IMG/VR virus record: IMGVR_UViG_3300044729_003129
Span: 62,001 to 126,000 of that record
Length of the DNA stretch: 64,000 nt
From: a virus
Direction: 5' to 3' (one strand)
Shown: positions 25,043 to 36,249 of the stretch, piece after piece
Layout of the letters: each line of letters opens with the position of its first letter
Numbering within the stretch: the first letter of the stretch is position 1
The notes under the pieces: generated by a model
The model's database searches: none
What the model was told of the DNA's origin: nothing
The model's input: only the letters and a program-made list of their open reading frames with translations
Made by a program: the position numbers and the translations under genes

Positions 25043-26764
25043 TTAGGCCATTTCCTTGATTTTTGTGAAGTTTTTAACCTTTTGGAACTCGATTTTTTGC
25101 TCAAATTTGCCTTCTAATAGATCTTGCTTATGACTAATCACGAATATGCGAGTGTCTGCATCTAATGTACCCATAATTTTAAGTAGGTTGTCAATACCAT
25201 CAGAATCAAGACTTGCGTCAAATACTTCGTCGAGAATGAGTAGATTTGTATTGCTACTATTTTTCATCTTTGCGACTTGTCTCCATGCAAAGAGCAGACT
25301 CAAATCTATTCGTTGTTTTTCTCCTTCACTAAATGAACTATATGAAAAGTCATCGCGATGACGTGAGCGTATCGTCTCTGTAAAATTTTCATCAAGGTTA
25401 AATGAAACAAAAAAGTCAAGAGTTTGCAGATAATGATTGATAAGCTTGTTCATGACAGGAAGATATTGACGAATAATTTTTGTTTTTATTCCAGTGTCCT
25501 TTAAGAGTTCAGCAATAACTTCATTGTACATTCTCTCTTCGAGTTGAGTAGACTTGAGTTCTTGGAGTGTGTCTCTTTCAGAATAGAGAGAATCTAATAC
25601 ATGTTGAGCATCAGCTGTCTCGGACGTCTCATGATGTGTGTTCATAAGTGTGGTCAGGTCAGAGATACGTTTTTCAAATCCAGCGATTAAATTTTGATTG
25701 CTATGTATCTTATTGTGTAATTTATTCAAACGCGCTAACTCAAGTGTTGCTTCTTGAACAGCATCACCAGTTTGCGTCAATGATTCCTTGAGCTTCTCAT
25801 AGCCAGAATTTAATTCTTGCGCGCTATGCCTGCATTGAGAGATTTTATTTTCACGAATGTCATCACTAATGCTTTGATTGCATGTTGGACATTCAGTATG
25901 ATTTTCATAAAACTGCGAGTCAGACACTATCTTTTTGATGTTATCTTTAATTTGTCTCTCGTATGACAGCAACGAAGCTTTTGTTTTTTCATGTCGTTGC
26001 AACTGACTCTGTGTCTTGCCATAGGCATCGCTATACTCTGCGCCTAGCGTCAAATTTTCTGCATTCATAGCAGACACATTGGCTTTAAGACCATCTATCT
26101 CATCAAGATATTTTGCAGCATTGCTCTCATTTAGTTGTTGCAAATGCAGCATATGTTTCTTTTGCAACTCTATCTTTTCCTTTGTAGTAAATAGTTGGTT
26201 TTCTGTGTCCTTTAAATTATCCTTAAGCTTTGCAGTGTTCTCCTTTAACACTGCGTTCATTTTACTAAACACCCCAATATCAAGTAGGTCTTCAATAACC
26301 TCACGACGGTGATGACTGCTAAGTTGCATAAATGGAATAAAGTTGCTGCTACCAAGCACAACAACCTGGTGAAAACTCTTGTGATTCAACTTTAAGATAT
26401 TTGTCTCAAGTAACTTTTGATAGTCACGCGAATGTGACTCTTGATTTATGAGTATTCCGTTTTGCCAAATTTCAAAAATGTTTGGCTTTAGACCACGAAT
26501 AATCTTATATTGTGATGGCCCTAATTTAAACTCAACAGTCACAAGACAATTTTTGCCATTGATGCTATTGATAAGTTGTGGCTTGTTGATGTTACGATGA
26601 GGTTTACCAAAAAGTACAAATGACAGTGCATCAAGCATGAGTGACTTGCCTGAACCATTGTGCCCAACAATAAGCGTTGAACGAGTGCTGTTTAGGTTCA
26701 TCGTAATTTCATTGTCGCCAACGCTTAAAAAATTACGATAACTCAAAGATGTAAAGATAATCAT
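25043..26764 (-). CDS. 46: Recombination exonuclease ATPase subunit (T4 gp46, Rad50-like)
   Basis: A 573-residue SMC/Rad50-type protein (T4 560). Walker A GHNGSGKS (residues about 34-41), two long coiled-coil arms, the zinc hook CPTCNQSI near residue 290, the signature FSEGEKQRIDLSLL and Walker B LLILDEVFDASLD. With gp47 it resects DNA ends for recombination-dependent replication. Overlaps gp47 by 4 bases in the usual 47-46 order. About 100 bases after its stop, before the next early promoter, no further gene is seen. Confidence 0.96.
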   Translation of the reverse strand: MIIFTSLSYRNFLSVGDNEITMNLNSTRSTLIVGHNGSGKSLMLDALSFVLFGKPHRNINKPQLINSINGKNCLVTVEFKLGPSQYKIIRGLKPNIFEIWQNGILINQESHSRDYQKLLETNILKLNHKSFHQVVVLGSSNFIPFMQLSSHHRREVIEDLLDIGVFSKMNAVLKENTAKLKDNLKDTENQLFTTKEKIELQKKHMLHLQQLNESNAAKYLDEIDGLKANVSAMNAENLTLGAEYSDAYGKTQSQLQRHEKTKASLLSYERQIKDNIKKIVSDSQFYENHTECPTCNQSISDDIRENKISQCRHSAQELNSGYEKLKESLTQTGDAVQEATLELARLNKLHNKIHSNQNLIAGFEKRISDLTTLMNTHHETSETADAQHVLDSLYSERDTLQELKSTQLEERMYNEVIAELLKDTGIKTKIIRQYLPVMNKLINHYLQTLDFFVSFNLDENFTETIRSRHRDDFSYSSFSEGEKQRIDLSLLFAWRQVAKMKNSSNTNLLILDEVFDASLDSDGIDNLLKIMGTLDADTRIFVISHKQDLLEGKFEQKIEFQKVKNFTKIKEMA

Positions 26765-27825
26765 ATGCCGTCAATTAATTGAGATTCAAGATAGAGTTCT
26801 TGTAGTTTAGATTTTATGCGGGTCTTATCAAGGTCTGTTTCAATAGCATCAACATAACTGTTTAATAAAGAAGAGGTGTCAGATATTTCAATAGATTCAT
26901 CATCGATACTATCAGCAGAATATTCTACAAATGACTCAACTATTTTTAAGTCAAATGGTTCTGCAGTGTTTATTGAGTCAATATACTTATCAAAAGCATA
27001 TGGATCTTTTTTAGATGTGACAACTACCTTTATATATGTTCCAGAGACTTCACTTGGTTCAACTAGGGTGACAGGACCAAGGGTGTCGTCATAGGTCAAT
27101 CTTTTAAAGAGTGAAAGCGGGTTGCGAATCTCTGAAAGTTCACGGGTGTTTGTGTCTAATATATGAAAATATTTGGGGTCATTGCAGTCTGCCCAAGTAA
27201 TCTCATATGGCACACCAAGATAATGAATGTTGCCACGGCTGCTCTTTGTGTGATAGTGACCAGAGAGAACCATTTCATACCGAGAGAACAAATCTGCTGA
27301 CATGCCATGACTGACTGCTGGAGCGCCCTTCATCATCTCAAATCCAGCAAGTTCCAAGTGAGCTCCAATTATTGGTGCGTGCGCTTTTTCAATAAAGGCA
27401 CATGACTCTGCATAATTTTCAGGCGTAATCCATGGCAGCAACGCAACTGAGAGGCCATCATAGTCTCGCACCGTAGGGGACATAATCACATTTACATTCT
27501 TACTATGATATTGCAATAACTCAGTAAGGCTACAAAGTGAATTTGTATTTCTAAAAAATGTGTCATGATTGCCAGGAATAATATCCATGGTCATGCCATA
27601 CTCTTCAAGTTTGTCAAGAAACATGGCTCGGTTACGTGCCAATACTTTGTAGTTAAGATATTTACGATGATCAAAGTAATCACCGAGATGAAGTATCTGA
27701 GTTATGCCCTGAGCCTGACAGGCCGGAAAAAAGACCTCAGAATAGAACCGCTCAGTGTAATCTATAAAGACGTCGCTACCATTTTTAACACCGGTATGGG
27801 TATCAGTAAGTATTGCTATTTTCAT
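26761..27825 (-). CDS. 47: Recombination nuclease subunit (T4 gp47, Mre11-like)
   Basis: A 354-residue nuclease (T4 339). Metallophosphoesterase motifs: DTHTG (residues 8-12), LGDYFDHR, PGNHD near 85, GAHLE and SGHYHTKS near 190; a capping domain follows. It forms the gp46/gp47 complex, the phage Mre11-Rad50 analogue. Start overlaps the gp55 stop by 4 bases. Confidence 0.95.
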   Translation of the reverse strand: MKIAILTDTHTGVKNGSDVFIDYTERFYSEVFFPACQAQGITQILHLGDYFDHRKYLNYKVLARNRAMFLDKLEEYGMTMDIIPGNHDTFFRNTNSLCSLTELLQYHSKNVNVIMSPTVRDYDGLSVALLPWITPENYAESCAFIEKAHAPIIGAHLELAGFEMMKGAPAVSHGMSADLFSRYEMVLSGHYHTKSSRGNIHYLGVPYEITWADCNDPKYFHILDTNTRELSEIRNPLSLFKRLTYDDTLGPVTLVEPSEVSGTYIKVVVTSKKDPYAFDKYIDSINTAEPFDLKIVESFVEYSADSIDDESIEISDTSSLLNSYVDAIETDLDKTRIKSKLQELYLESQLIDGI

Positions 27826-28424
27826 GAGATAAAACTGTCAAGAGCACCAATCTTCTGTGATTCTTCTTTGACTTTTTTCTGTGCGCGTGGCTTTTCACTT
27901 GTCTCAGCAACTTCGTTACTTTCTTTGTAAAAAGCGTCATTACGCTGGCGCATCTTTTCAACAAGTGATTCACCATAGTCTGAATCGTCTTCAAACTCAG
28001 CAAAGTTTCCAATGCCACCTTTTTCGATTAGTAGTTGCTTGATATCAGCCTGCTTCTTTTCTTTTGCAATACGACGTAAAAACGCATACCATGAAATTTG
28101 TGTAAAATATGAAAATGCATTTGGATTGCCAGTGCGCGTTGGCTTATTGATGTCATAATTCATAATGGCCTTGATACAATTTTCTACTGCATCCATAACC
28201 ATGTCTTCACGATAACTATAATTCATAAAGTTTGGGCTGCGTGACAGTCCGTTTGCAATCTTCATAAAGCATTCACCAATATAGTTGGTAATTTGTCGAG
28301 GTTCTCGACCACTTGCTTTATCCTCTGTAACTGCACTTACATACTCAACAACAGCAGTAGAGAAATCTTTATTGTTGACATAGTCATCACCGCGTGATTT
28401 TCGTTTTGTCTTTTCAGTTTTCAT
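27822..28424 (-). CDS. 55: Late-transcription sigma factor (T4 gp55)
   Basis: A 200-residue protein (T4 185). DDYVNNKDFSTAVVEYV matches the T4 start YNYVNNKELLQAI; the region NFMNYSYREDMVMDAVENCI, NPNAFSYFTQISWYAFLRRI is the sigma region-2-like core that recognises TATAAATA. The C-terminal GALDSFIS resembles the T4 clamp-binding tail SLDFLYE. Start 28424 is preferred to 28451 because the promoter -10 box sits 6 bases before it; translation would then begin at the mRNA 5' end. Abundant TATAAATA late promoters in this window agree with its role. Confidence 0.95.
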   Translation of the reverse strand: MKTEKTKRKSRGDDYVNNKDFSTAVVEYVSAVTEDKASGREPRQITNYIGECFMKIANGLSRSPNFMNYSYREDMVMDAVENCIKAIMNYDINKPTRTGNPNAFSYFTQISWYAFLRRIAKEKKQADIKQLLIEKGGIGNFAEFEDDSDYGESLVEKMRQRNDAFYKESNEVAETSEKPRAQKKVKEESQKIGALDSFIS

Positions 28425-28430
28425 AGCTTC

Positions 28431-28458
28431 ATTATATACTATATTTTGCAAATGTAAA
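28431..28458 (-). promoter_or_regulatory. Early promoter of gene 55
   Basis: Minus strand TTTACA (28458-28453), 16-base spacer, TATAAT (28436-28431), 6 bases to ATG 28424. Predicted leaderless. Confidence 0.85.
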
Positions 28459-28488
28459 TACTTTTTTACATCTATGTGAATTTTGTTA

Positions 28489-28517
28489 TTTACATAGATT
28501 ATAAAAGAGTGTATAAT
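28489..28517 (+). promoter_or_regulatory. Plus-strand early-type promoter, antisense to late-region genes
   Basis: On the plus strand TTTACA (28489-28494), 17-base spacer, TATAAT (28512-28517). It points into the antisense strand of genes 28541-29002 and uvsW. The site is embedded in short inverted repeats (CATAGATT / AATCTATG). No plus-strand gene follows. Confidence 0.5.
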
Positions 28518-28540
28518 AATCTATGATTGTTTGATAGTCA

Positions 28541-29002
28541 TCATACATTCTTCCAACGATCTAAGAAAATATTCCATAATTCTTCGTCAGACTGTGATTC
28601 TTCTGGTGGATCAATTTCAGGAATGGGATAATTTAAATCTTCTGATTCATCCAATTCATTCTCATCTGTTTCTTTAGAAGAATTGGACATCAAGTGAAGT
28701 AGTCTCTGATATATAAGTGCTTCTGTATATTTACGTTTAACCTCATCAGATGTATCAGATTCTGTTTCAATACTACGATCATAGACAATACAATTTTCAC
28801 TGTCATTCCCAGCTACAAGTGGTAGCATTACTTGGGTATAGACTCCAGACTTTACAAGTGCTTTTCTTATTTCTAGTGGATAATTTAACTGTATGCCATC
28901 TTCATAGGCATGCACAACTTCTCCTATAAGAACTTTACCACTCGACAATGTAAAGACCCGTATGTCAAGATCTTTTACTTTTGAATATAAGCCATCAATC
29001 AT
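28541..29002 (-). CDS. Hypothetical protein with Sm-like N-terminal strands
   Basis: A 153-residue protein. DIRVFTLSSGKVLIGEVVHAYEDGIQL looks like the first strands of an Sm/LSm-type barrel; the C-terminal half is acidic and Ser/Glu/Pro-rich (DENELDESEDL, DPPEESQSDEELW). It lies between gp55 and the C-terminal piece of uvsW, a position where T4-like cyanophages carry a conserved unnamed gene. Start overlaps the uvsW stop (ATGA). The Sm-like idea is a visual guess. Confidence 0.7.
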   Translation of the reverse strand: MIDGLYSKVKDLDIRVFTLSSGKVLIGEVVHAYEDGIQLNYPLEIRKALVKSGVYTQVMLPLVAGNDSENCIVYDRSIETESDTSDEVKRKYTEALIYQRLLHLMSNSSKETDENELDESEDLNYPIPEIDPPEESQSDEELWNIFLDRWKNV

Positions 29003-29910
29003 TGCAGTGGTATTTCATATAGTTTATAGTTAAACCCTTCCTTTGCATACATTTTGGTACGCTCTATTGCGTGTTGCAGTGTGTAATTCTTTTTCTTTTT
29101 CCATGAGAAGTTGTCTGATATGTCATAGACTGTTGTTGGTCGACCATCATCAGATTTTCGTAGTCCTCGACCAATGCTTTGCAATACACGTATTTGACTC
29201 TTTGTTGGCGCAGCAAATATAATCTGGTGCAGATTTTTGATATTGATTCCTGTACTAAACGTACCAACACTCGCCACAATAATTGCATTGTTTTGTGTTT
29301 CAGTTAATTCACGTATGTGTTCTCTGTTTGTTGCGTCTACTTCTCCAGACACATAGAATATATGTCTATCAGAATCACCATTAATACTACTTATAAGTTC
29401 AAAAAGAGGTTTGCCATGTTTCTGAACGAGATTAAAGAGTATGAGTGTATTGCCCTTTTGGTCAAGAGCAAGGTTTGCTATAAAAGAGTTTCGACCAACA
29501 TGAGTCACAATTGCATCTATCTCAGTTTGATAGTCGGCTTTAGAGATTACCTTTTTAAGTTCATCACTGTGGTTGCATACAATACATTTAATTTTTAATG
29601 CAGCAAGAGTATCGTTATCAATAAGCTCTTTTGTTGTAATTACTCGATGAGTTGGACCAAAATTGCCAACAAGTACTCGTTCATTGCAAAGACTGCCATC
29701 AAGGGTGCCAGTAGTGCCTATGCGATAACATGCATTAACACATGCAGACATAATCGTATTTAAACTTTTTGCTTTGAAGAGATGTGCTTCATCTCCTATG
29801 ACCATGCCATAGCTTTTAAACCAGGATTTTTGTAATGTAATTGCGCTCTGCCATGTAGTAATAATAACAGGCGATGGAGTTTCAATGATATCAATTTTAG
29901 ATATTTTCAT
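28999..29910 (-). CDS. uvsW: UvsW helicase, C-terminal fragment
   Basis: A 303-residue piece of UvsW. It begins MKISKIDIIETPSPVIITTW; from TPSPVIITTWQ onward it aligns with T4 UvsW (NDAPVVVGTWQ). It carries helicase motif II GDEAH, TGTLDG (motif III), IFYVSGEVDATNREHIREL (motif IV region), FSTGINIKNLHQIIFA (motif V) and QSIGRGLR (motif VI). Walker A is missing because it is in the separate fragment at 30754-31506. The two would have to assemble into one enzyme. The start overlaps the end of the HNH gene by 14 bases. Confidence 0.9.
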   Translation of the reverse strand: MKISKIDIIETPSPVIITTWQSAITLQKSWFKSYGMVIGDEAHLFKAKSLNTIMSACVNACYRIGTTGTLDGSLCNERVLVGNFGPTHRVITTKELIDNDTLAALKIKCIVCNHSDELKKVISKADYQTEIDAIVTHVGRNSFIANLALDQKGNTLILFNLVQKHGKPLFELISSINGDSDRHIFYVSGEVDATNREHIRELTETQNNAIIVASVGTFSTGINIKNLHQIIFAAPTKSQIRVLQSIGRGLRKSDDGRPTTVYDISDNFSWKKKKNYTLQHAIERTKMYAKEGFNYKLYEIPLQ

Positions 29911-30727
29911 ATTTTTTTCTGCCTAACACCCATTCATTATTATCTATAATAGGAAACATCAACTTTGAAATTCGTAATTCATCATTATGATACCATTTCA
30001 TTCCTGTAGTAGTAGAATGTTTGGCTTTACGTTCTTCAGCGCTTAATAAGGAATTATTTTTTATTTTAGTTTTCGACATTTTGCGAACACGATCTGAATT
30101 TTCCTTTGTTTGACCAGTTCGTTCTAAACTAAACTTTTTTCTAACTTCATCAGACCATTCATGTCCAAATTTCTGTTTCCGCTCTTCTTTTGTCATCTTA
30201 GCAATAGTTTCATTGAATTTATTTCGCGAATCTCGTAGCCATTGTGAATTCTCAGCAGTATATTGTGATTTTTTTATATTAGCGATTCTAATATAATCAT
30301 GAGTTTCTTTAGTTCTCCCACTTAAAGCCTTACTAATTTTCTGTTTGGTATTATCATCAAATAATGGATTATTTTTCTGCATATGATCTATCCAAATCAA
30401 TTTATAATCAAGATATTGTCTTGAAGATTTAGATTTATTTCTGCGATTTAGAAAGAACATCGCTCTAACCATTTTTAACCTATTTTCTCCAAAAAACATC
30501 TTTGTTAAAAGTAAATGACAAATAAAATGTTCCCGAATCGTAAGAACTACTTTGTTATCATTTTTATTTTTCCAATCACGATTAAACGAAACTGGAAATA
30601 TATGGTGGTTTTCAATAGGATTATCTAATATATTCCTAGATATAGCGCGATTGATTAAGGCATTATACCATTTTGTATATTTATTGCTTATCGCAAGATT
30701 ATTAAGTTCATTTAAAAAGTAATTCAT
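29897..30727 (-). CDS. HNH homing endonuclease splitting uvsW
   Basis: A 276-residue HNH endonuclease. KWYNALINRAISR, then ENHHIFPVSFNRDWKNKNDN and VVLTIREHFICHLLLTKMF form the HNH core common in T4-like phages; the rest has repeats (KQKISKALSGRTKE, EVRKKFSLERTGQ) like NUMOD DNA-binding motifs. It sits precisely between the two halves of uvsW and has its own late promoter (30751-30758). Homing would insert it at the matching site of uvsW in related phages. Confidence 0.9.
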   Translation of the reverse strand: MNYFLNELNNLAISNKYTKWYNALINRAISRNILDNPIENHHIFPVSFNRDWKNKNDNKVVLTIREHFICHLLLTKMFFGENRLKMVRAMFFLNRRNKSKSSRQYLDYKLIWIDHMQKNNPLFDDNTKQKISKALSGRTKETHDYIRIANIKKSQYTAENSQWLRDSRNKFNETIAKMTKEERKQKFGHEWSDEVRKKFSLERTGQTKENSDRVRKMSKTKIKNNSLLSAEERKAKHSTTTGMKWYHNDELRISKLMFPIIDNNEWVLGRKKYENI

Positions 30728-30750
30728 ACCTACAAAGGTTGTTATAGGTA

Positions 30751-30758
30751 TATTTATA
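30751..30758 (-). promoter_or_regulatory. Late promoter TATAAATA of the HNH gene
   Basis: Exact TATAAATA; its TAA is also the stop codon of the UvsW N-terminal fragment. Distance to ATG 30727 is 23 bases. Confidence 0.8.
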
Positions 30759-31506
30759 CTATGTCATCTTTTAAAGTTAAATCACCAGCTTTAATTTTAC
30801 CTCTATTACTAGTATTTACTATATCATTTGGAAAATACGACTGTATTGATCCATCTTCCATAGTCAATTTAATTTTATTTTTTTGGGGATTTTTATCATA
30901 TCCGCTCATTATCATAGATACACTATCTTCAACATTAAATGTATCATCAGATTTAGAATACTCTTCAAAATCTTTTGTCATTTGGTGAACGAGTGATGTT
31001 GTAGGCACTACAATCAATATCTTTTGATCATAATGTTCTAAAAACCAACGAACACATAAGTAGATAATTAAACTTTTTCCAGAACCCGTAGGAGATATTA
31101 CGAGACTGCGTCCTTCAGTGCATGCATGCACGTATGCTTCAAGTTGATAGTCTCGTGGTGTTATCTGCGTTCCACCACTCGTTATATGTAAACTATTTGC
31201 ATAATCTAACAGCGATTGTGATGTTGGTACATCTCGTTCAGTTATGCTAGGATGCAATTCATAACTATAGCCATGAGAGTCAGCAAACTTTAACACTTCA
31301 AACAACAGACCATATGGTAGTGTTGATGTTTTAGTATTATATAATCTAATGCGTCCATCCCATAATTTATTTCTATACGATGGAACAAACTTATATCCTT
31401 CAGCAAAAAAAGTAAAATGTTCTGAAAGCTCCATAAGAATTCCAGAATCATTAGAGACTATTCTCAATGAAGTTTCGTCAATCTTATGTATCTTTAGATG
31501 AGACAT
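30754..31506 (-). CDS. uvsW: UvsW helicase, N-terminal fragment
   Basis: A 250-residue piece of UvsW. LRIVSNDSGILMELSEHFTF, FVPSYRNKLWDGRIRLYN and ITPRDYQLEAYVHACTEGRS match T4 UvsW; Walker A is SPTGSGKSLI and motif Ia ILIVVPTTSLVHQM. Similarity stops near NPQKN. The last 40 residues (KIKLTMEDGSIQSYF ... GKIKAGDLTLKDDIV) have no T4 counterpart and look like part of a Hint-type fold. Motif II onward is in the other fragment (28999-29910). Start 31506 fits the T4 N-terminus; the frame is open to 31530. It overlaps the GIY-YIG gene by 23 bases. Confidence 0.9.
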   Translation of the reverse strand: MSHLKIHKIDETSLRIVSNDSGILMELSEHFTFFAEGYKFVPSYRNKLWDGRIRLYNTKTSTLPYGLLFEVLKFADSHGYSYELHPSITERDVPTSQSLLDYANSLHITSGGTQITPRDYQLEAYVHACTEGRSLVISPTGSGKSLIIYLCVRWFLEHYDQKILIVVPTTSLVHQMTKDFEEYSKSDDTFNVEDSVSMIMSGYDKNPQKNKIKLTMEDGSIQSYFPNDIVNTSNRGKIKAGDLTLKDDIV

Positions 31507-32317
31507 TATCTTTATATTTGCAGTTATCAAAATGCCATCGTTTCATAGTATTTATTCCTCCATTTTTATTACAATGTGGACATATGATAATATTAGATTT
31601 TTTTCCAGTTAATGCTTTACTTATTTTTTCTCTAGTTTCTGGAGAATTAGTTAATCCTATTCTAGTTCCAATTTTACCAATATTAGCTAATCTAAGTTTT
31701 TCTTTAGTTTCTTCAGAGTGAACTTTTAATTTGAGTTTTAATGACCTTTCATTCCATATATGAGCTTTAATACTTTCAATATCTGAAAAATTACTAATAT
31801 CATTATTTCTTATAAATGTTATAACTGAAAAACTAATATTTAATTGTTTCATTGCGGATGTTATTGAATCATACGTTTCTCCAAGTATAGTTATTTGTTT
31901 TGATTTTTTAGATTTTCTACCAGACATTTTTATAGAATGCGCAAAGGCAGATGCTTTTTGTTTAGGTGATCGCAAATCTCCCTTTAAAGTTACTAGTGTA
32001 TTAGACATAATTTCACTAGTAATAATTGGGGGTGCAGGTCTATCTGTTTTATTTAAAAAATCTAAACGATTAACTGCATTTAATCTTTTTAATACTTTAG
32101 ATTCCCATTTACATGCTGCATCTTTATTTTTAAATGTTTTACGTATTTGAATAATATCAGGATTGCCATAGATATCAATATATGATTTTACGACTGATGA
32201 TGAAGTAAAATATGTGACAAATAAATCAGATGGATGACAATTGAAGGAATATCTAACTCCATAATAATATTTGTTTAAATTTTTCCAACCAATTAAATAC
32301 GTATATGGTATATTCAT
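31484..32317 (-). CDS. GIY-YIG homing endonuclease
   Basis: A 277-residue protein. TYLIGWKNLNKYYYGVRYS is the GIY-YIG-type start (strand, turn, YYYGVRY), and CHPSDLFVTYFTSSSVVKSY continues the catalytic module. The C-terminal half has NUMOD3-like repeats (EKLRLANIGKIGTRIG, TREKISKALTGKK) and a Cys-His ending (CPHCNKNG...HFDNC) that may bind zinc. Its 3' end overlaps the start of uvsW. It has its own late promoter 5 bases before the ATG. Probably a mobile gene inserted between uvsY and uvsW. Confidence 0.85.
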   Translation of the reverse strand: MNIPYTYLIGWKNLNKYYYGVRYSFNCHPSDLFVTYFTSSSVVKSYIDIYGNPDIIQIRKTFKNKDAACKWESKVLKRLNAVNRLDFLNKTDRPAPPIITSEIMSNTLVTLKGDLRSPKQKASAFAHSIKMSGRKSKKSKQITILGETYDSITSAMKQLNISFSVITFIRNNDISNFSDIESIKAHIWNERSLKLKLKVHSEETKEKLRLANIGKIGTRIGLTNSPETREKISKALTGKKSNIIICPHCNKNGGINTMKRWHFDNCKYKDNVSSKDT

Positions 32318-32322
32318 ATTAG

Positions 32323-32330
32323 TATTTATA
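32323..32330 (-). promoter_or_regulatory. Late promoter TATAAATA of the GIY-YIG gene
   Basis: Exact TATAAATA, 5 bases before ATG 32317, so +1 falls on the start codon. Confidence 0.8.
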
Positions 32331-32361
32331 ATAATACATTTTTAATGTACTGGTATCGCCA

Positions 32362-32811
32362 TTAAGCTCCTGATACAAATCGTCTATGATCTATAATATT
32401 TTTAATTGTGGTATGTCTCCACTTTATATTGTCCATAATATCTTTAAGAGCTTCAACAATTGTAGATTGATATTCTATTTGTCCTTGAAGTTTCATAATA
32501 TCAGAGTCAGTAGAGTAAAACAATTCCATGTCACTTTTAAGCGGTTTCGTCATACCAGAAAATGGATCATACTGCCATCCTTTGGCATCCATTTCGTTTT
32601 TAGTCATCTTACCATTATAGTAGAGCCATTTGTCTTTGCGCAAATGAGCCATAGAGAGTTCTTTCTTTTTGAGATTTAACTTTGCGATGCTATAGAGTTC
32701 TAGATATTTTGAATGTAGACTAGCACTTTTGACGCTCGTTTCATCTAAATTAATCTCATCAATAACGCTGTCAGTTTCCCATAATTTAAGTATATCTTCA
32801 AGTTGCATCAT
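32362..32811 (-). CDS. uvsY: Recombination mediator UvsY
   Basis: A 149-residue protein (T4 137). MQLEDILKLWETDSVID matches the T4 start MRLEDLQEELKKDVFID; LHSKYLELYSIAKLNLKKKE, HLRKDKWLYYNGKMT and the C-terminal HTTIKNIIDHRRFVSG follow T4 UvsY. It loads UvsX recombinase onto gp32-covered single-stranded DNA. T4-like order uvsY-uvsW is kept apart from the mobile genes. Confidence 0.93.
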   Translation of the reverse strand: MMQLEDILKLWETDSVIDEINLDETSVKSASLHSKYLELYSIAKLNLKKKELSMAHLRKDKWLYYNGKMTKNEMDAKGWQYDPFSGMTKPLKSDMELFYSTDSDIMKLQGQIEYQSTIVEALKDIMDNIKWRHTTIKNIIDHRRFVSGA

Positions 32812-32827
32812 AATATATTATATATCA

Positions 32828-33280
32828 TTATAAAAATTCAAAATAATCATAACGAAAAGTAACATCTACATAGGCATATTCTGATTCGGTTTGTTGTACA
32901 TTAAACTCTAGCCCTCCTATATTTGTAGGAAATGCATTTGCAAAACGTACACTGCGAGATATATTGTTATGATTTGTTAAAAAGTGTAACGTCATGTCAT
33001 GGTTAATTAGTGTGTTGGATGATGTATTAGCATAGATCCAATTAAAAATCTCTCGATATGATTCTAAACTTTCATCTATTGCAATGCGCACGGTTAATGG
33101 ATCATATGCTAATTTATCGCCTGGAACAAACCCTTGTAAGTTTCGAAATCCAGTTGTAACCTCTGGCAATGACACAGCAGGAAAACTTGCACTTACAGCA
33201 AAATATTGAGTGTGCTTAAAGTCTTCAGCATGTATGTATAGTTTGAACCCAGTTAATGCTAATAAATTTGAATCTATCAT
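32828..33280 (-). CDS. Tail tube-like (gp19-family) paralogue
   Basis: A 150-residue protein. Its C-terminal segment FANAFPTNIGGLEFNV parallels FVGAFPTNIGAIELNY in the tail tube protein at 38714-39253, and both end in VDVTFRYDYF / FTVELNYQYW strands. It is thus a gp19-family fold protein. Cyanophages have a tail gene (gp3-like position) between gp23 and uvsY, so it may be a tail terminator or tube-initiator of this fold. Variant late box CATAAATA lies 5 bases upstream of its start. Confidence 0.75.
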   Translation of the reverse strand: MIDSNLLALTGFKLYIHAEDFKHTQYFAVSASFPAVSLPEVTTGFRNLQGFVPGDKLAYDPLTVRIAIDESLESYREIFNWIYANTSSNTLINHDMTLHFLTNHNNISRSVRFANAFPTNIGGLEFNVQQTESEYAYVDVTFRYDYFEFL

Positions 33281-33285
33281 ACTAT

Positions 33286-33293
33286 TATTTATG
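33286..33293 (-). promoter_or_regulatory. Late promoter variant CATAAATA
   Basis: Minus strand CATAAATA, 5 bases before ATG 33280, directly after the capsid terminator. Confidence 0.6.
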
Positions 33294-33294
33294 C

Positions 33295-33325
33295 AAAAAA
33301 GAGGCTACCCGAAAGGGTAGCCTCT
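33295..33325 (-). terminator. Strong rho-independent terminator after gp23
   Basis: AGAGGCTACCC (33300-33310), tetraloop and GGGTAGCCTCT (33315-33325): a perfect 11-pair stem with a UUUC loop on the minus-strand RNA, followed by six T. It isolates the highly expressed capsid gene from downstream genes. Confidence 0.95.
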
Positions 33326-33355
33326 AATTTTAAGGTTATTACCTATTGCAACAAA

Positions 33356-34657
33356 TTATGCTGCGTTAGTGTAAGTAGAACCACCAATACCAGTTACTGT
33401 GAACTTACGGAAGTATGGGTTAGCTGCGTTAGCACCTGTACCGCCGTTAGCTGTTGGGTTACCAGCAAATGGGTTAGCAACGAGACCATAACGTGTCTTG
33501 AAGCCAATCTTTGGTTGGAATGTGTCTGGATCAACTGCACGAACCATTGTGAGTGGAACGTATGGGCAATAGAACATACCAGCGTCGTATGCGTTTGTAC
33601 CGCGATAACCAACAGTTACATAATCTTCGGATGCGAATGGGTCGATGAACACCTTGAGACGGCCATTTACCATACCAGCAAATACATTGCCAGTGTCGTC
33701 AACATTGAGGTTGGTTGCAAGAGCTGGAGCATAGTCAAGCACACCAGCTGCAGCAAGAGCACTTGCAACATTGCTGCTGCAAAGTACAAAGTTTGCCTTA
33801 CCACGACGTGTTGCCTTAGCAACTGCGTTAGCTTCAACTTCAATTTGGAAGAGAAGTGACTTGAACTTTTCAACAGCCCAACGACCGTCAGCATCTTGGT
33901 CAAGATCGAAAGTACCATTGATGCCAGCAACTTGTGCTTTTGTATTAACAGTGTCGATAACTTCACGGTTGATTTCTGCAAGAATCTCAGTGCTGAGGAT
34001 GTTTGCAAGTTCTGCTTCTGCATCGAGGCCATGAACAGCCTTAAGGTCTTGAGCAAGTTCCATTGAATATTCAGCCTTAAGAGCGCGTGTCTTAGCAGTA
34101 ACGGTTGTCTTGTCAACAGTGAATCCCATTTGACCAAAGCCAGTGCCAGTTGCACCAGTAGTACGACCAATTTGAACTGTGCCTACGGATGGATCTGGAT
34201 CAACATAGTTACCATCTACACCATTGCCAGTGAGAGCTTCACCTTGTGCAGTAGTAACTGGTTGACCACTGAATGCGGTGTCTGGCTTGTTGAAGAGAGC
34301 TTCAGCAGTATTTGCACCGGCTGCATTTTGATATTGACTGCGCATAGCGAAGATCAAGCCAGTTGGCATGGTCATTGGCTGAACACCAGCAATATCATAA
34401 GCAACGATGTTTGGCATCGCACGACGAACAAGGCTGATAAGAACTGGATCCCAGGTCTTAACTGCGCCGGTGCCGTCACCGATTGAGTTGCCTTCAGCAA
34501 GATATGCAGATTGTGCATTTTCTTCTCTGAGTGCTTTTTCTTGGTTTTCGAGAAGAACTGCAGTAATTGACTTACGATAGTTGTCCTTGAACTTAGGGGC
34601 GTCTTGAGCCTCAAGAATTGGGGCCCACTTTTTTTCTAGTGTTTCTGAATTAAACAT
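33356..34657 (-). CDS. 23: Major capsid protein (T4 gp23)
   Basis: A 433-residue capsid protein (T4 521). The N-terminal scaffold-like helix (KKWAPILEAQDAPKFKDNYR), LISLVRRAMPNIVAYDIAGVQP, GLIFAMRSQYQNA, and RALKAEYSMELAQDLKAVHGLDAE are conserved gp23 segments; the C-terminus ends KIGFKTRYGLVANPFA. In T4 the N-terminal part is removed by gp21. Strong late expression is expected; a terminator follows and an unusual CAA-repeat leader precedes it. Confidence 0.97.
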   Translation of the reverse strand: MFNSETLEKKWAPILEAQDAPKFKDNYRKSITAVLLENQEKALREENAQSAYLAEGNSIGDGTGAVKTWDPVLISLVRRAMPNIVAYDIAGVQPMTMPTGLIFAMRSQYQNAAGANTAEALFNKPDTAFSGQPVTTAQGEALTGNGVDGNYVDPDPSVGTVQIGRTTGATGTGFGQMGFTVDKTTVTAKTRALKAEYSMELAQDLKAVHGLDAEAELANILSTEILAEINREVIDTVNTKAQVAGINGTFDLDQDADGRWAVEKFKSLLFQIEVEANAVAKATRRGKANFVLCSSNVASALAAAGVLDYAPALATNLNVDDTGNVFAGMVNGRLKVFIDPFASEDYVTVGYRGTNAYDAGMFYCPYVPLTMVRAVDPDTFQPKIGFKTRYGLVANPFAGNPTANGGTGANAANPYFRKFTVTGIGGSTYTNAA

Positions 34658-34713
34658 AATAGTATTTTTTCTTTATTGTTTGTTGTTGTTGTTGTTTGGG
34701 GTTGGAACCTTTA
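34658..34713 (-). promoter_or_regulatory. CAA-repeat 5' leader of gene 23
   Basis: Between gp22 and gp23 the minus strand carries five uninterrupted CAA units (34694-34680) inside a G-poor, unstructured A/C-rich stretch. No TATAAATA and no Shine-Dalgarno are seen in these 56 bases. Confidence 0.6.
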
Positions 34714-36249
34714 TCAACGTACTGGAATAGTGGCTTCATTTGCCTTGTTCAGACGTGATAATGCGGTCAAGTATTTTTGCATTGCAGGCGAAACTGTTTC
34801 TTCTGCAATTGTTTCATTTTCTATAACTGTTTCGGTTGTTATATAGGAAGATTCATTGGCATTTTCTTCAACCAATGTTTCTGTTTCTTCGACTGCAGCG
34901 CCATTAAGGTAAAATTCCTTGATGGTAGCTACCTTCTTGCGAAATGATGTTTCTGATGTGCATTCGATATCTTCAAGTAATGACTTGAGTTTTTCAACTT
35001 GGGTGTCAGCAAGATCTGTTGTAGACTCAGAGATTACCTTTTCACGAGTAAGGCTATTAACCTTTTCGTTGAGGGCAAGCACTGTGTTTTCCAATTCTGA
35101 AGACTCAGTTTGAAGTTGAGCGATTGAAGTTTCCATCTCAGCGACCAAATCCTGCTTGGACTCAGGCACTTCAATATAGTTTTCAACAAATACTGTCTTG
35201 AGTGATTGAATGAAGTTTTCAGCAATTTGTGTACGGAGTCCGCCTTCGATTGCAACCTTGTTATCTTCTACCCAGCTTTCAACTGCATAGGTAAGATAGT
35301 TGTCAATCTTTTCAACGAGTTCTTCTTTGATTGTTTCTACTTCTTCAATAAGAGCGACTGCATAGCTTTCTTTAAGAGTTTCTTCAGTTTCTTTGAGTTT
35401 GCTCTTAACAGCAGCTTCAAAAATTGTAGTAGCTTTTTCTTTAAACTCTTCAGTCAATCCTGTTTCACTTTCAACGAGACGAGTAATGTCAGATGTATCA
35501 ATTGAGATTGTGTTTTCTTCGATAACTTCTTCAGTTTCTTCTTTCATGTCCTTTTTCTTGATTTCTGGATGATATTTTTCAGCTTCAGCTGCATTGTCGT
35601 AATGTGCAATAACTGCACTACGAACTTTGTTAAACGGACCAGATAAAGTAATTGCGCCTGCAGGATTTGCAGCTTTAACACCTTCTTTTGCTCTGGCTTT
35701 AACATAGTCTGCAAAATCATCAGGATCGACATCATCTAATGGATCAACTTTAATTCGAACGGTTAAGTTCTTTTGAGTTTCTTCTGCTTCTTTCATCTCA
35801 ACTTCTTTTTCGTCTTCCATTTCTTCTTCGCCAAGCCCACTGGTGATCATACCAATTGCTGAACCATAATCGCCGTCAGCCTTTTTAAGGATGCCTTCGA
35901 TTGCGGCCATTGCCTTGGCTTCATCATAGTTGTCTCCGTGAGCAGCCTTAAGAATACCCTTAGCGTATGCAGTAAACTCTTCATCAGAGCTTACTTCAGC
36001 TTCTTCAGATACCTTTTTAGCTTCAGTCATTTCTTCTTCGTCATCTTCACACTCTTCTTCATCCTCTTTTTCGTCTTCATCAGACTCTTCTTCATCTTCC
36101 ATGTCTTCTCCCTCTTTCTTACACTTGCCTTCTGCAATCTCAGTTTGTTCCTGATCAAGCTCTAAGGTTTCGTCAAGAGAAAGTAATGTTTCTTCGTTGA
36201 TGTCTTCAATGACGACATCTTCTGTGTTTTCAATTTGTGTATTTTCCAT
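34714..36249 (-). CDS. 22: Prohead core scaffold protein (T4 gp22)
   Basis: A 511-residue scaffold, nearly twice T4 gp22 (269). Residues 40-85 are extremely acidic (EDEEESDEDEKEDEEE). The middle has an added domain (VRIKVDPLDDVDPDDFADYV, FNKVRSAVIAHYDN), and residues 250-420 are long helices and coiled coil typical of gp22 (ESGLTEEFKEKATTIFEAAV, LQTESSELENTVLALNEKV). It fills the prohead and is digested by gp21. Position between 21 and 23 fixes the identity. Confidence 0.9.
   Translation of the reverse strand: MENTQIENTEDVVIEDINEETLLSLDETLELDQEQTEIAEGKCKKEGEDMEDEEESDEDEKEDEEECEDDEEEMTEAKKVSEEAEVSSDEEFTAYAKGILKAAHGDNYDEAKAMAAIEGILKKADGDYGSAIGMITSGLGEEEMEDEKEVEMKEAEETQKNLTVRIKVDPLDDVDPDDFADYVKARAKEGVKAANPAGAITLSGPFNKVRSAVIAHYDNAAEAEKYHPEIKKKDMKEETEEVIEENTISIDTSDITRLVESETGLTEEFKEKATTIFEAAVKSKLKETEETLKESYAVALIEEVETIKEELVEKIDNYLTYAVESWVEDNKVAIEGGLRTQIAENFIQSLKTVFVENYIEVPESKQDLVAEMETSIAQLQTESSELENTVLALNEKVNSLTREKVISESTTDLADTQVEKLKSLLEDIECTSETSFRKKVATIKEFYLNGAAVEETETLVEENANESSYITTETVIENETIAEETVSPAMQKYLTALSRLNKANEATIPVR

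What the first reader, a model, noticed from the sequence alone, without database searches (positions are those of the whole stretch)
29910..30754. uvsW helicase encoded in two pieces split by an HNH gene
Seen: the N-terminal piece (30754-31506) has motifs I and Ia (SPTGSGKS, VVPTTSLVHQM) but stops before motif II. The C-terminal piece (28999-29910) has GDEAH through QSIGRGLR. An HNH endonuclease (29897-30727) with its own late promoter lies between. The break is inside the first RecA lobe, so neither piece can hydrolyse ATP alone. Known: phage Aeh1 nrdA is split by a homing endonuclease and its parts still assemble. Inference: UvsW may work as a two-polypeptide helicase here.
Basis: partly seen in the sequence, partly recalled or inferred. 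Interest (0 to 1): 0.8.

Follow-up and report, generated by a model that had tools for sequence, protein, structure and literature searches.

The report
Phage helicase split, joined by intein-like tails
A phage DNA-repair helicase gene is cut in two by a selfish endonuclease gene, and the two protein pieces carry matching end-tags that look like a non-splicing half of a split intein, apparently a built-in clip that holds the broken enzyme together; the tag on phage T4's split topoisomerase looks related.

Summary
In detail: uvsW lies in two ORFs (N 31506-30754, C 29910-28999) with an HNH homing-endonuclease gene between, and the genome record holds no second uvsW. It is not an artefact: independent contigs carry it, and relatives have intact uvsW with a 5-aa loop at exactly this point. 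The last ~43 residues of the N piece and first ~13 of the C piece are not UvsW. The same tail and "MKIxKI" head recur in about a dozen diverse splits at this loop, with HNH or GIY-YIG-like endonucleases or none, so tail and head persist while endonucleases come and go. Joined by stop read-through, tail plus head is modelled as a partial Hint (intein) domain: all 50 listed PDB fold matches are inteins or Hint domains (gp41-1: 1.7 A rmsd). The nucleophile, block-B histidine and terminal Asn/+1 nucleophile are missing, so canonical splicing is excluded. Best reading: a two-chain UvsW docked by a splicing-dead split-intein remnant. T4 gp39 (split from gp60 by mobA) ends in a similar tail (1 of 20,000 shuffles scores as well). 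Docking and activity are inferred, not shown.

The parts
30886..31506 (-). UvsW N piece, helicase part (residues 1-207: UvsW_N domain, motif I SPTGSGKS, motif Ia)
   Evidence: alignment to intact relatives
30757..30885 (-). Foreign tail of the N piece (residues 208-250, QKNKIKLTMEDGSIQSYFPNDIVNTSNRGKIKAGDLTLKDDIV), intein N2-like
   Evidence: absent from intact relatives; recurs in other splits; partial Hint by fold
30754..30756 (-). Stop codon of the N piece
30751..30758 (-). T4-type late promoter -10 element TATAAATA, overlapping the N-piece stop
   Evidence: 19 copies in the window, all minus strand, 6.2 expected
30725..30752 (-). Hairpin (11-bp stem) that would cover the start region of the HNH gene in read-through mRNA
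   Evidence: -12.1 kcal/mol, z -3.43; much weaker if the 5' arm is removed
29897..30727 (-). HNH homing endonuclease gene (276 aa)
   Evidence: phrog_655 homing endonuclease 2.6e-30; motif ENHHIFP
29872..29910 (-). Foreign head of the C piece (MKISKIDIIETPS), like the start of a C-intein; its ATG overlaps the end of the HNH gene
   Evidence: head forms a strand in the AlphaFold2 models of the homologous L237 pieces
28999..29871 (-). UvsW C piece, helicase part (PVIITTWQ..., motif II GDEAH to motif VI QSIGRGLR) and stop
   Evidence: 94-99% identical to close intact relatives
31484..32317 (-). Second free-standing endonuclease-like gene (NUMOD3, I-TevI DNA-binding-like) overlapping the uvsW start; passenger, not part of the split
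   Evidence: absent in intact relatives such as L005

Best explanation
uvsW was fractured at one surface loop between helicase motifs Ia and II by a mobile cassette of three parts: a ~43-residue tail in frame with the N piece, a homing-endonuclease gene, and a ~10-13-residue head in frame with the C piece. Tail and head together form part of a Hint domain, the fold of inteins: the tail matches the second half of an N-intein and the head the first strand of a C-intein, the two segments through which split inteins first bind each other (established knowledge). The splicing residues are absent, so the two chains are not ligated; the module most likely docks them non-covalently so that the first RecA lobe closes around both and the ATP site (Walker A on one chain, DEAH on the other) is rebuilt. 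The endonuclease is a replaceable passenger that can be lost while the split and tails remain. Shown here: anatomy, recurrence, conservation, lack of splicing residues, predicted partial Hint fold, co-conversion trace. Inferred: docking, activity and origin from a split intein.
For: Intact close relatives read IYSGKEKHNIESRVIITTWQ at the break; the window reads MSGYDKNP + tail, then head + PVIITTWQ. L008 is split at the same loop by a different, GIY-YIG-like gene with a 27%-identical tail and head MKIKKITKVE. A pattern scan gave many more splits at this loop, heads MKIxKI; L361 adds another. Endonuclease-free splits: L262, L263, the L237 group (21-codon relic) and L225 (relic). Tails: L234/L262 second-site pair dN 0.086, dS 0.81; L220/L232 dN 0.28, dS 1.04. 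AlphaFold2 of the L237 read-through: tail pLDDT 81-87, head strand 74-88; best PDB match T4 UvsW 2oca at 4e-36, and 1rif TM 0.85 by target. Tail+head alone: all 50 listed PDB matches are inteins or Hint domains, gp41-1 at 1.7 A; intein-rich matches among viral proteins. By sequence, the tail profile finds NrdJ-1 (0.029) and gp41-1 (0.24) inteins in the PDB. Splicing residues absent in all splits. No second uvsW. T4 gp39 tail: 12.6 bits, 1/20,000 shuffles.
Against: No biochemistry or proteomics. The fold rests on AlphaFold2 models of a read-through chain (three stops read as Gly), which forces tail and head into one chain; the small model has mean pLDDT 64.5 (about 80 in tail and head) from 3 sequences, and its Foldseek E-values are only 0.007 and weaker. 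Sequence E-values to inteins are marginal, and one unrelated beta-rich protein scored higher (0.0098). Splits are a small minority of uvsW genes (154 of 160 further loci intact), so a mild fitness cost is possible.
Confidence: 0.72

Rival explanations
1. A working split intein: the two pieces trans-splice into one full-length UvsW, as in the fractured genes with split inteins known from marine metagenomes.
For: Same gene layout (gene piece, intein part, free-standing endonuclease, intein part, gene piece); tail and head resemble N2 and the first strand of C-inteins by fold and weakly by sequence.
Against: Tails start directly after the helicase sequence with no block A and no conserved Cys/Ser; the block-B histidine is D, Q or other; no head carries HN or a +1 nucleophile. 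The module is about half the size of a minimal intein.
Confidence: 0.04
2. uvsW is simply broken by the endonuclease gene and the pieces are decaying; the phage does without UvsW or uses a host enzyme.
For: Intact uvsW is the common state; L234 and L262 share a one-base frameshift in their third piece.
Against: Both pieces keep all motifs, and the C piece is 94-99% identical to close intact relatives; synonymous excess in tails; splits recur in many diverse lineages and persist where the endonuclease is gone; tails and heads keep their pattern although only an assembled protein would need them.
Confidence: 0.1
3. Two-chain UvsW assembles through its own RecA-lobe surfaces; tail and head are passive leftovers of insertion with no docking role.
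For: Aeh1 NrdA-a/b make a working enzyme (PMC2988022) and show no such module; split proteins often self-complement.
Against: Tail and head occur together in every split with enough sequence, across tails down to about 24-30% identity, also after endonuclease loss, and a related tail sits at the gp39 break.
Confidence: 0.12
4. A group I or II intron carries the HNH gene and RNA splicing joins the exons.
For: Phage HNH genes often sit in introns.
Against: No Rfam intron match in 26000-36000 even at E up to 5; endonuclease-free splits have gaps of 5-66 nt, far too short for an intron; the reading frame runs through a conserved protein tail into a stop.
Confidence: 0.02

Closest known systems
T4 topoisomerase II large subunit gp39/gp60 (split by mobA)
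   Same: Gene broken by an HNH endonuclease gene, pieces assemble into a known enzyme (PMC2988022; PDB 8yo3 holds both). gp39 ends in a tail that scores with the UvsW-tail profile (12.6 bits, 1/20,000 shuffles); gp60 starts MKFVKI. Similar tails in Proteus, Acinetobacter, Salmonella, Aeromonas and Campylobacter phages.
   Different: Different enzyme and site; tail shorter, without the D-D/E-I end; T4 gp60 also has a translational bypass. Its tail's fold was not examined here.
Fractured genes with split inteins (gp41-1, NrdJ-1 type, phage metagenomes)
   Same: Gene piece, intein part, free-standing endonuclease, intein part, gene piece; tail and head match gp41-1 and NrdJ-1 in fold and weakly in sequence.
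   Different: Half-sized module; no nucleophiles, block-B His or terminal Asn, so no splicing; pieces stay separate.
Aeromonas phage Aeh1 NrdA-a/NrdA-b (split by mobE)
   Same: HNH gene breaks a metabolic enzyme gene and both parts make a working enzyme (PMC2988022).
   Different: Its tail does not score with this module.
T4 UvsW (2oca, 1rif)
   Same: Same helicase, all motifs present; the modelled two-piece protein matches it best.
   Different: One chain in T4; in T4 the endonuclease SegE targets uvsW from outside the gene (PMC2988022).

Membership tests
UvsW helicase | UvsW_N domain plus SF2 motifs I-VI | tested here: met
   UvsW_N 1e-17, ResIII, DEAD, Helicase_C; helicase PHROGs; motifs read directly
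Split intein (splicing) | Block A N-terminal Cys/Ser nucleophile | tested here: not met
   Helicase sequence runs straight into the block-B half; no block A in any split
Split intein (splicing) | Block B TxxH histidine | tested here: not met
   Position is D in the window tail, Q in L008, other residues elsewhere
Split intein (splicing) | C-terminal HN and +1 Cys/Ser/Thr | tested here: not met
   No head has it
Hint fold | Structural similarity to inteins or hedgehog Hint domains | tested here: met
   Partial fold only: all 50 listed PDB matches of the predicted tail+head are inteins or Hint domains, prob 0.84-1.00, E 0.007-0.45
Gene fractured by a homing endonuclease | Endonuclease gene between two pieces of one gene; intact relatives without it | tested here: met
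Gene fractured by a homing endonuclease | Pieces assemble into an active enzyme | not testable with these tools
   Needs co-expression and assays
T4 gp39-type tail | Tail homologous to the gp39 C-terminus | tested here: met
   12.6 bits; 1/20,000 shuffles; no C-terminus among about 3,400 control ORFs scores as high apart from the split uvsW pieces
Aeh1 NrdA-a-type tail | Tail homologous to the NrdA-a C-terminus | tested here: not met
   No score
Group I/II intron | Match to an intron RNA family | tested here: not met
   None in 10 kb at E up to 5

The most novel reading that the evidence does not exclude
T4-like phages carry a class of homing-endonuclease cassettes whose ends encode a two-part, splicing-free half-Hint clip. 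When the cassette breaks a gene, the clip holds the two polypeptides together, so the host enzyme survives without protein splicing. The class would include uvsW (two sites, one lineage with three pieces) and the classical T4 gp39/gp60 topoisomerase, with fused descendants in Aeromonas phages 65 and CC2. It would be either a decay product of split inteins or a relic of the half-Hint from which inteins may have arisen.
Probability: 0.55. Interest if true: 0.88.

Novelty: new variant of a known kind. Interest (0 to 1): 0.78.

Why it matters
[quoted passage not shown] A shared docking module would give one testable answer for UvsW and possibly for T4's topoisomerase, explain why a selfish gene can break an important enzyme gene without destroying its function, and show an intein fold kept for binding rather than splicing. 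It would also be a natural small non-splicing protein clip.

Tried and rejected
Rfam intron search: nothing credible. Pfam, NCBIfam and phmmer-PDB searches with single tails: no significant hit; the only weak NCBIfam hit of the L008 tail was an intein-containing RtcB model (0.12), and the only phage-genome hit of the window tail (E 3) fell in a dnaX-like intein. Tail alignment as a viral-contig query found only the window phage and L215. No split with this tail was seen among 50,697 phage records; uvsW split elsewhere in P-HM1 and one ACG-2014d isolate lacks it. The first structure alignment A3 misplaced tails and was replaced by A4. Aeh1 NrdA tail: no relation found. gp39 in this genome: not found. 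Literature: no paper on docking-only intein remnants found; the fractured-gene paper of 2009 is not held, so it is cited from memory.

Full report
1. The N piece (31506-30754) carries motifs I and Ia and ends before motif II; the C piece (29910-28999) carries motif II to VI; an HNH homing-endonuclease gene (30727-29897) lies between. The record is an IMG/VR virus contig of 173,760 bases and holds no other uvsW. The same split is on an identical contig and on a separate one, L004. Close relatives (L005, L006, L007, L009 and others) have one intact 500-residue uvsW with a short loop, IYSGKEKHNIESRVIITTWQ, exactly where the window is broken.

2. What lies at the break. After SGYDKNP the N piece runs on for 43 residues that no intact UvsW has, and the C piece starts with 13 residues that no intact UvsW has. 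L008 shows the same thing at the same loop with a different endonuclease-like gene (GIY-YIG-like by its YLIG...YYGVR motif only; no PHROG match), a tail only 27% identical and head MKIKKITKVE. A DNA pattern for 'MKIxK, short spacer, TWQ' found many more C pieces of UvsW starting this way. Wherever the upstream DNA was present, an N piece with a recognisable tail lay there. Distinct forms with both sides seen: window/L004, L008, L218 group, L220 and L361, L225, L232, L234/L242/L262, L237 group, L253, L260, L263. L250 and L256 show the head only.

3. The endonuclease is the variable part. Most gaps hold HNH genes of family phrog_655; L008 and L234/L242 hold GIY-YIG-like genes. L263 has a 5-nt gap (TAAAT then ATG), L262 24 nt, the L237 group 66 nt. 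The L237 gap read in another frame ends MKPETIDVSIWKLGRVFYEDS, close to the end of the L260 HNH protein (MNPKDVVLECEWKLGRKRYEN), so it is a relic; the 264-nt L225 gap likewise holds HNH fragments. So the break outlives the endonuclease. In L234, L242 and L262 the gene is broken a second time, between motifs IV and V, with the same kind of tail.

4. What the tail and head are. Before any test I noted that the tail resembles the second half of an N-intein. Tests: (a) a profile of ten tails searched against the PDB gave NrdJ-1 (E 0.029) and gp41-1 (0.24) inteins in the expected register, although one unrelated protein scored 0.0098. (b) A profile of twelve tails scores the dnaX-like intein of L147 above all of 20,000 shuffles. 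(c) AlphaFold2 of the L237 pieces read through as one chain (stops as Gly) gives tail pLDDT 81-87, head strand 74-88 and a floppy linker; the whole best matches T4 UvsW. (d) The tail+linker+head alone, 89 residues, gives 50 of 50 listed PDB matches to inteins or Hint domains, including gp41-1 at 1.7 A rmsd and 23% identity, NrdJ-1 and hedgehog, and intein-bearing viral proteins plus a topoisomerase fragment. The module is the inner part of a Hint domain: block-B half of the N-intein plus the first strand of the C-intein. Block A, the block-B His and block G with its +1 nucleophile are all missing, so canonical splicing is excluded.

5. Selection and mobility. In tails, synonymous change exceeds amino-acid change (dN 0.086 / dS 0.81 for the second-site tails of L234 and L262; 0.28 / 1.04 for L220 and L232). 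In the window, identity to intact L005 drops to 58-71% in the ~180 nt before the break and is 100% just after it, while L004 and L085 match the window at 96-100% there: the N-side flank came in with the cassette. The flank resembles L260 (DDTF..ED....IMSGY.K.P), pointing to that kind of donor. The HNH gene has its own TATAAATA and a hairpin over its start region, a pattern like the regulated late expression of T4 endonucleases (established knowledge; inference for this gene).

6. T4 topoisomerase. T4 gp39, split from gp60 by mobA, ends EWFTFELNGDTIIVNENDEVQINGKWITVGELRKNL, and gp60 starts MKFVKIDSSSVDM; intact Aeh1 gp39 has neither. The UvsW-tail profile gives the gp39 end 12.6 bits; 1 of 20,000 shuffles reaches it, and the best unrelated C-terminus listed among about 3,400 control ORFs is 10.8. 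Relatives of this tail occur in Proteus, Acinetobacter, Salmonella, Aeromonas and Campylobacter phages, several with an endonuclease gene or a relic after it; in Aeromonas phages 65 and CC2 the tail lies inside one fused gene. Aeh1 NrdA-a shows no relation.

7. How it most likely works (inferred from here on). Translation gives two chains; the acidic tail and the lysine-rich head pair as split-intein halves do, but no bond is made; this brings the two parts of RecA lobe 1 together and rebuilds an ATP site with Walker A on one chain and DEAH on the other. The module sits as a bulge in a surface loop, so it need not disturb the helicase.

8. How common. Splits are a minority: of 160 further loci from two distant-relative scans, 154 are intact, one split (L361) and five incomplete. 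None of 50,697 phage records was seen to carry this uvsW split, which may be why it has not been noticed.

9. Limits. All functional statements are inference. Model evidence uses a read-through chain and small alignments. Origin from a split intein is likely but its direction (decay or precursor) is open.

Noticed in passing
L234 3757-5746, L242, L262 (minus strand): uvsW is broken twice into three pieces, with the same kind of tail at the second break; L234 and L262 share an extra base (TTTCTCCAC) in the third piece at GTF/STG, a conserved frameshift of unknown meaning.
   Followed up: partly
window 31484-32317 (-): A free-standing endonuclease-like gene (NUMOD3, I-TevI DNA-binding-like) with its own TATAAATA (32330-32323) overlaps the uvsW start; its position recalls T4 segE, which targets uvsW.
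   Followed up: partly
L272 558-2561 and L277 582-2585: In Aeromonas phages 65 and CC2 the topoisomerase large subunit is one gene with the gp39-type tail inside it, a possible natural re-fusion.
   Followed up: partly
L275 2123-2335: Aeromonas phage Aes012 has a relic endonuclease between gp39 and gp60, with tail and split kept: the same state as the endonuclease-free uvsW splits.
   Followed up: no
L147 3437-5350: A 485-kb uncultured phage (LR745208) encodes a clamp-loader-like (DnaX) protein with a full-looking intein, whose block-B half resembles the window tail.
   Followed up: partly
L270 783-2262; L271 801-2356: Prochlorococcus phage P-HM1 and one ACG-2014d isolate have uvsW in two ORFs at another place, without endonuclease or tail; frameshift or sequencing error possible.
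   Followed up: partly
G000:C1:24841-24916 (L002): A 74% match to the end of the endonuclease-like gene before uvsW, perhaps a shared zinc-finger end of another endonuclease in the same genome.
   Followed up: no
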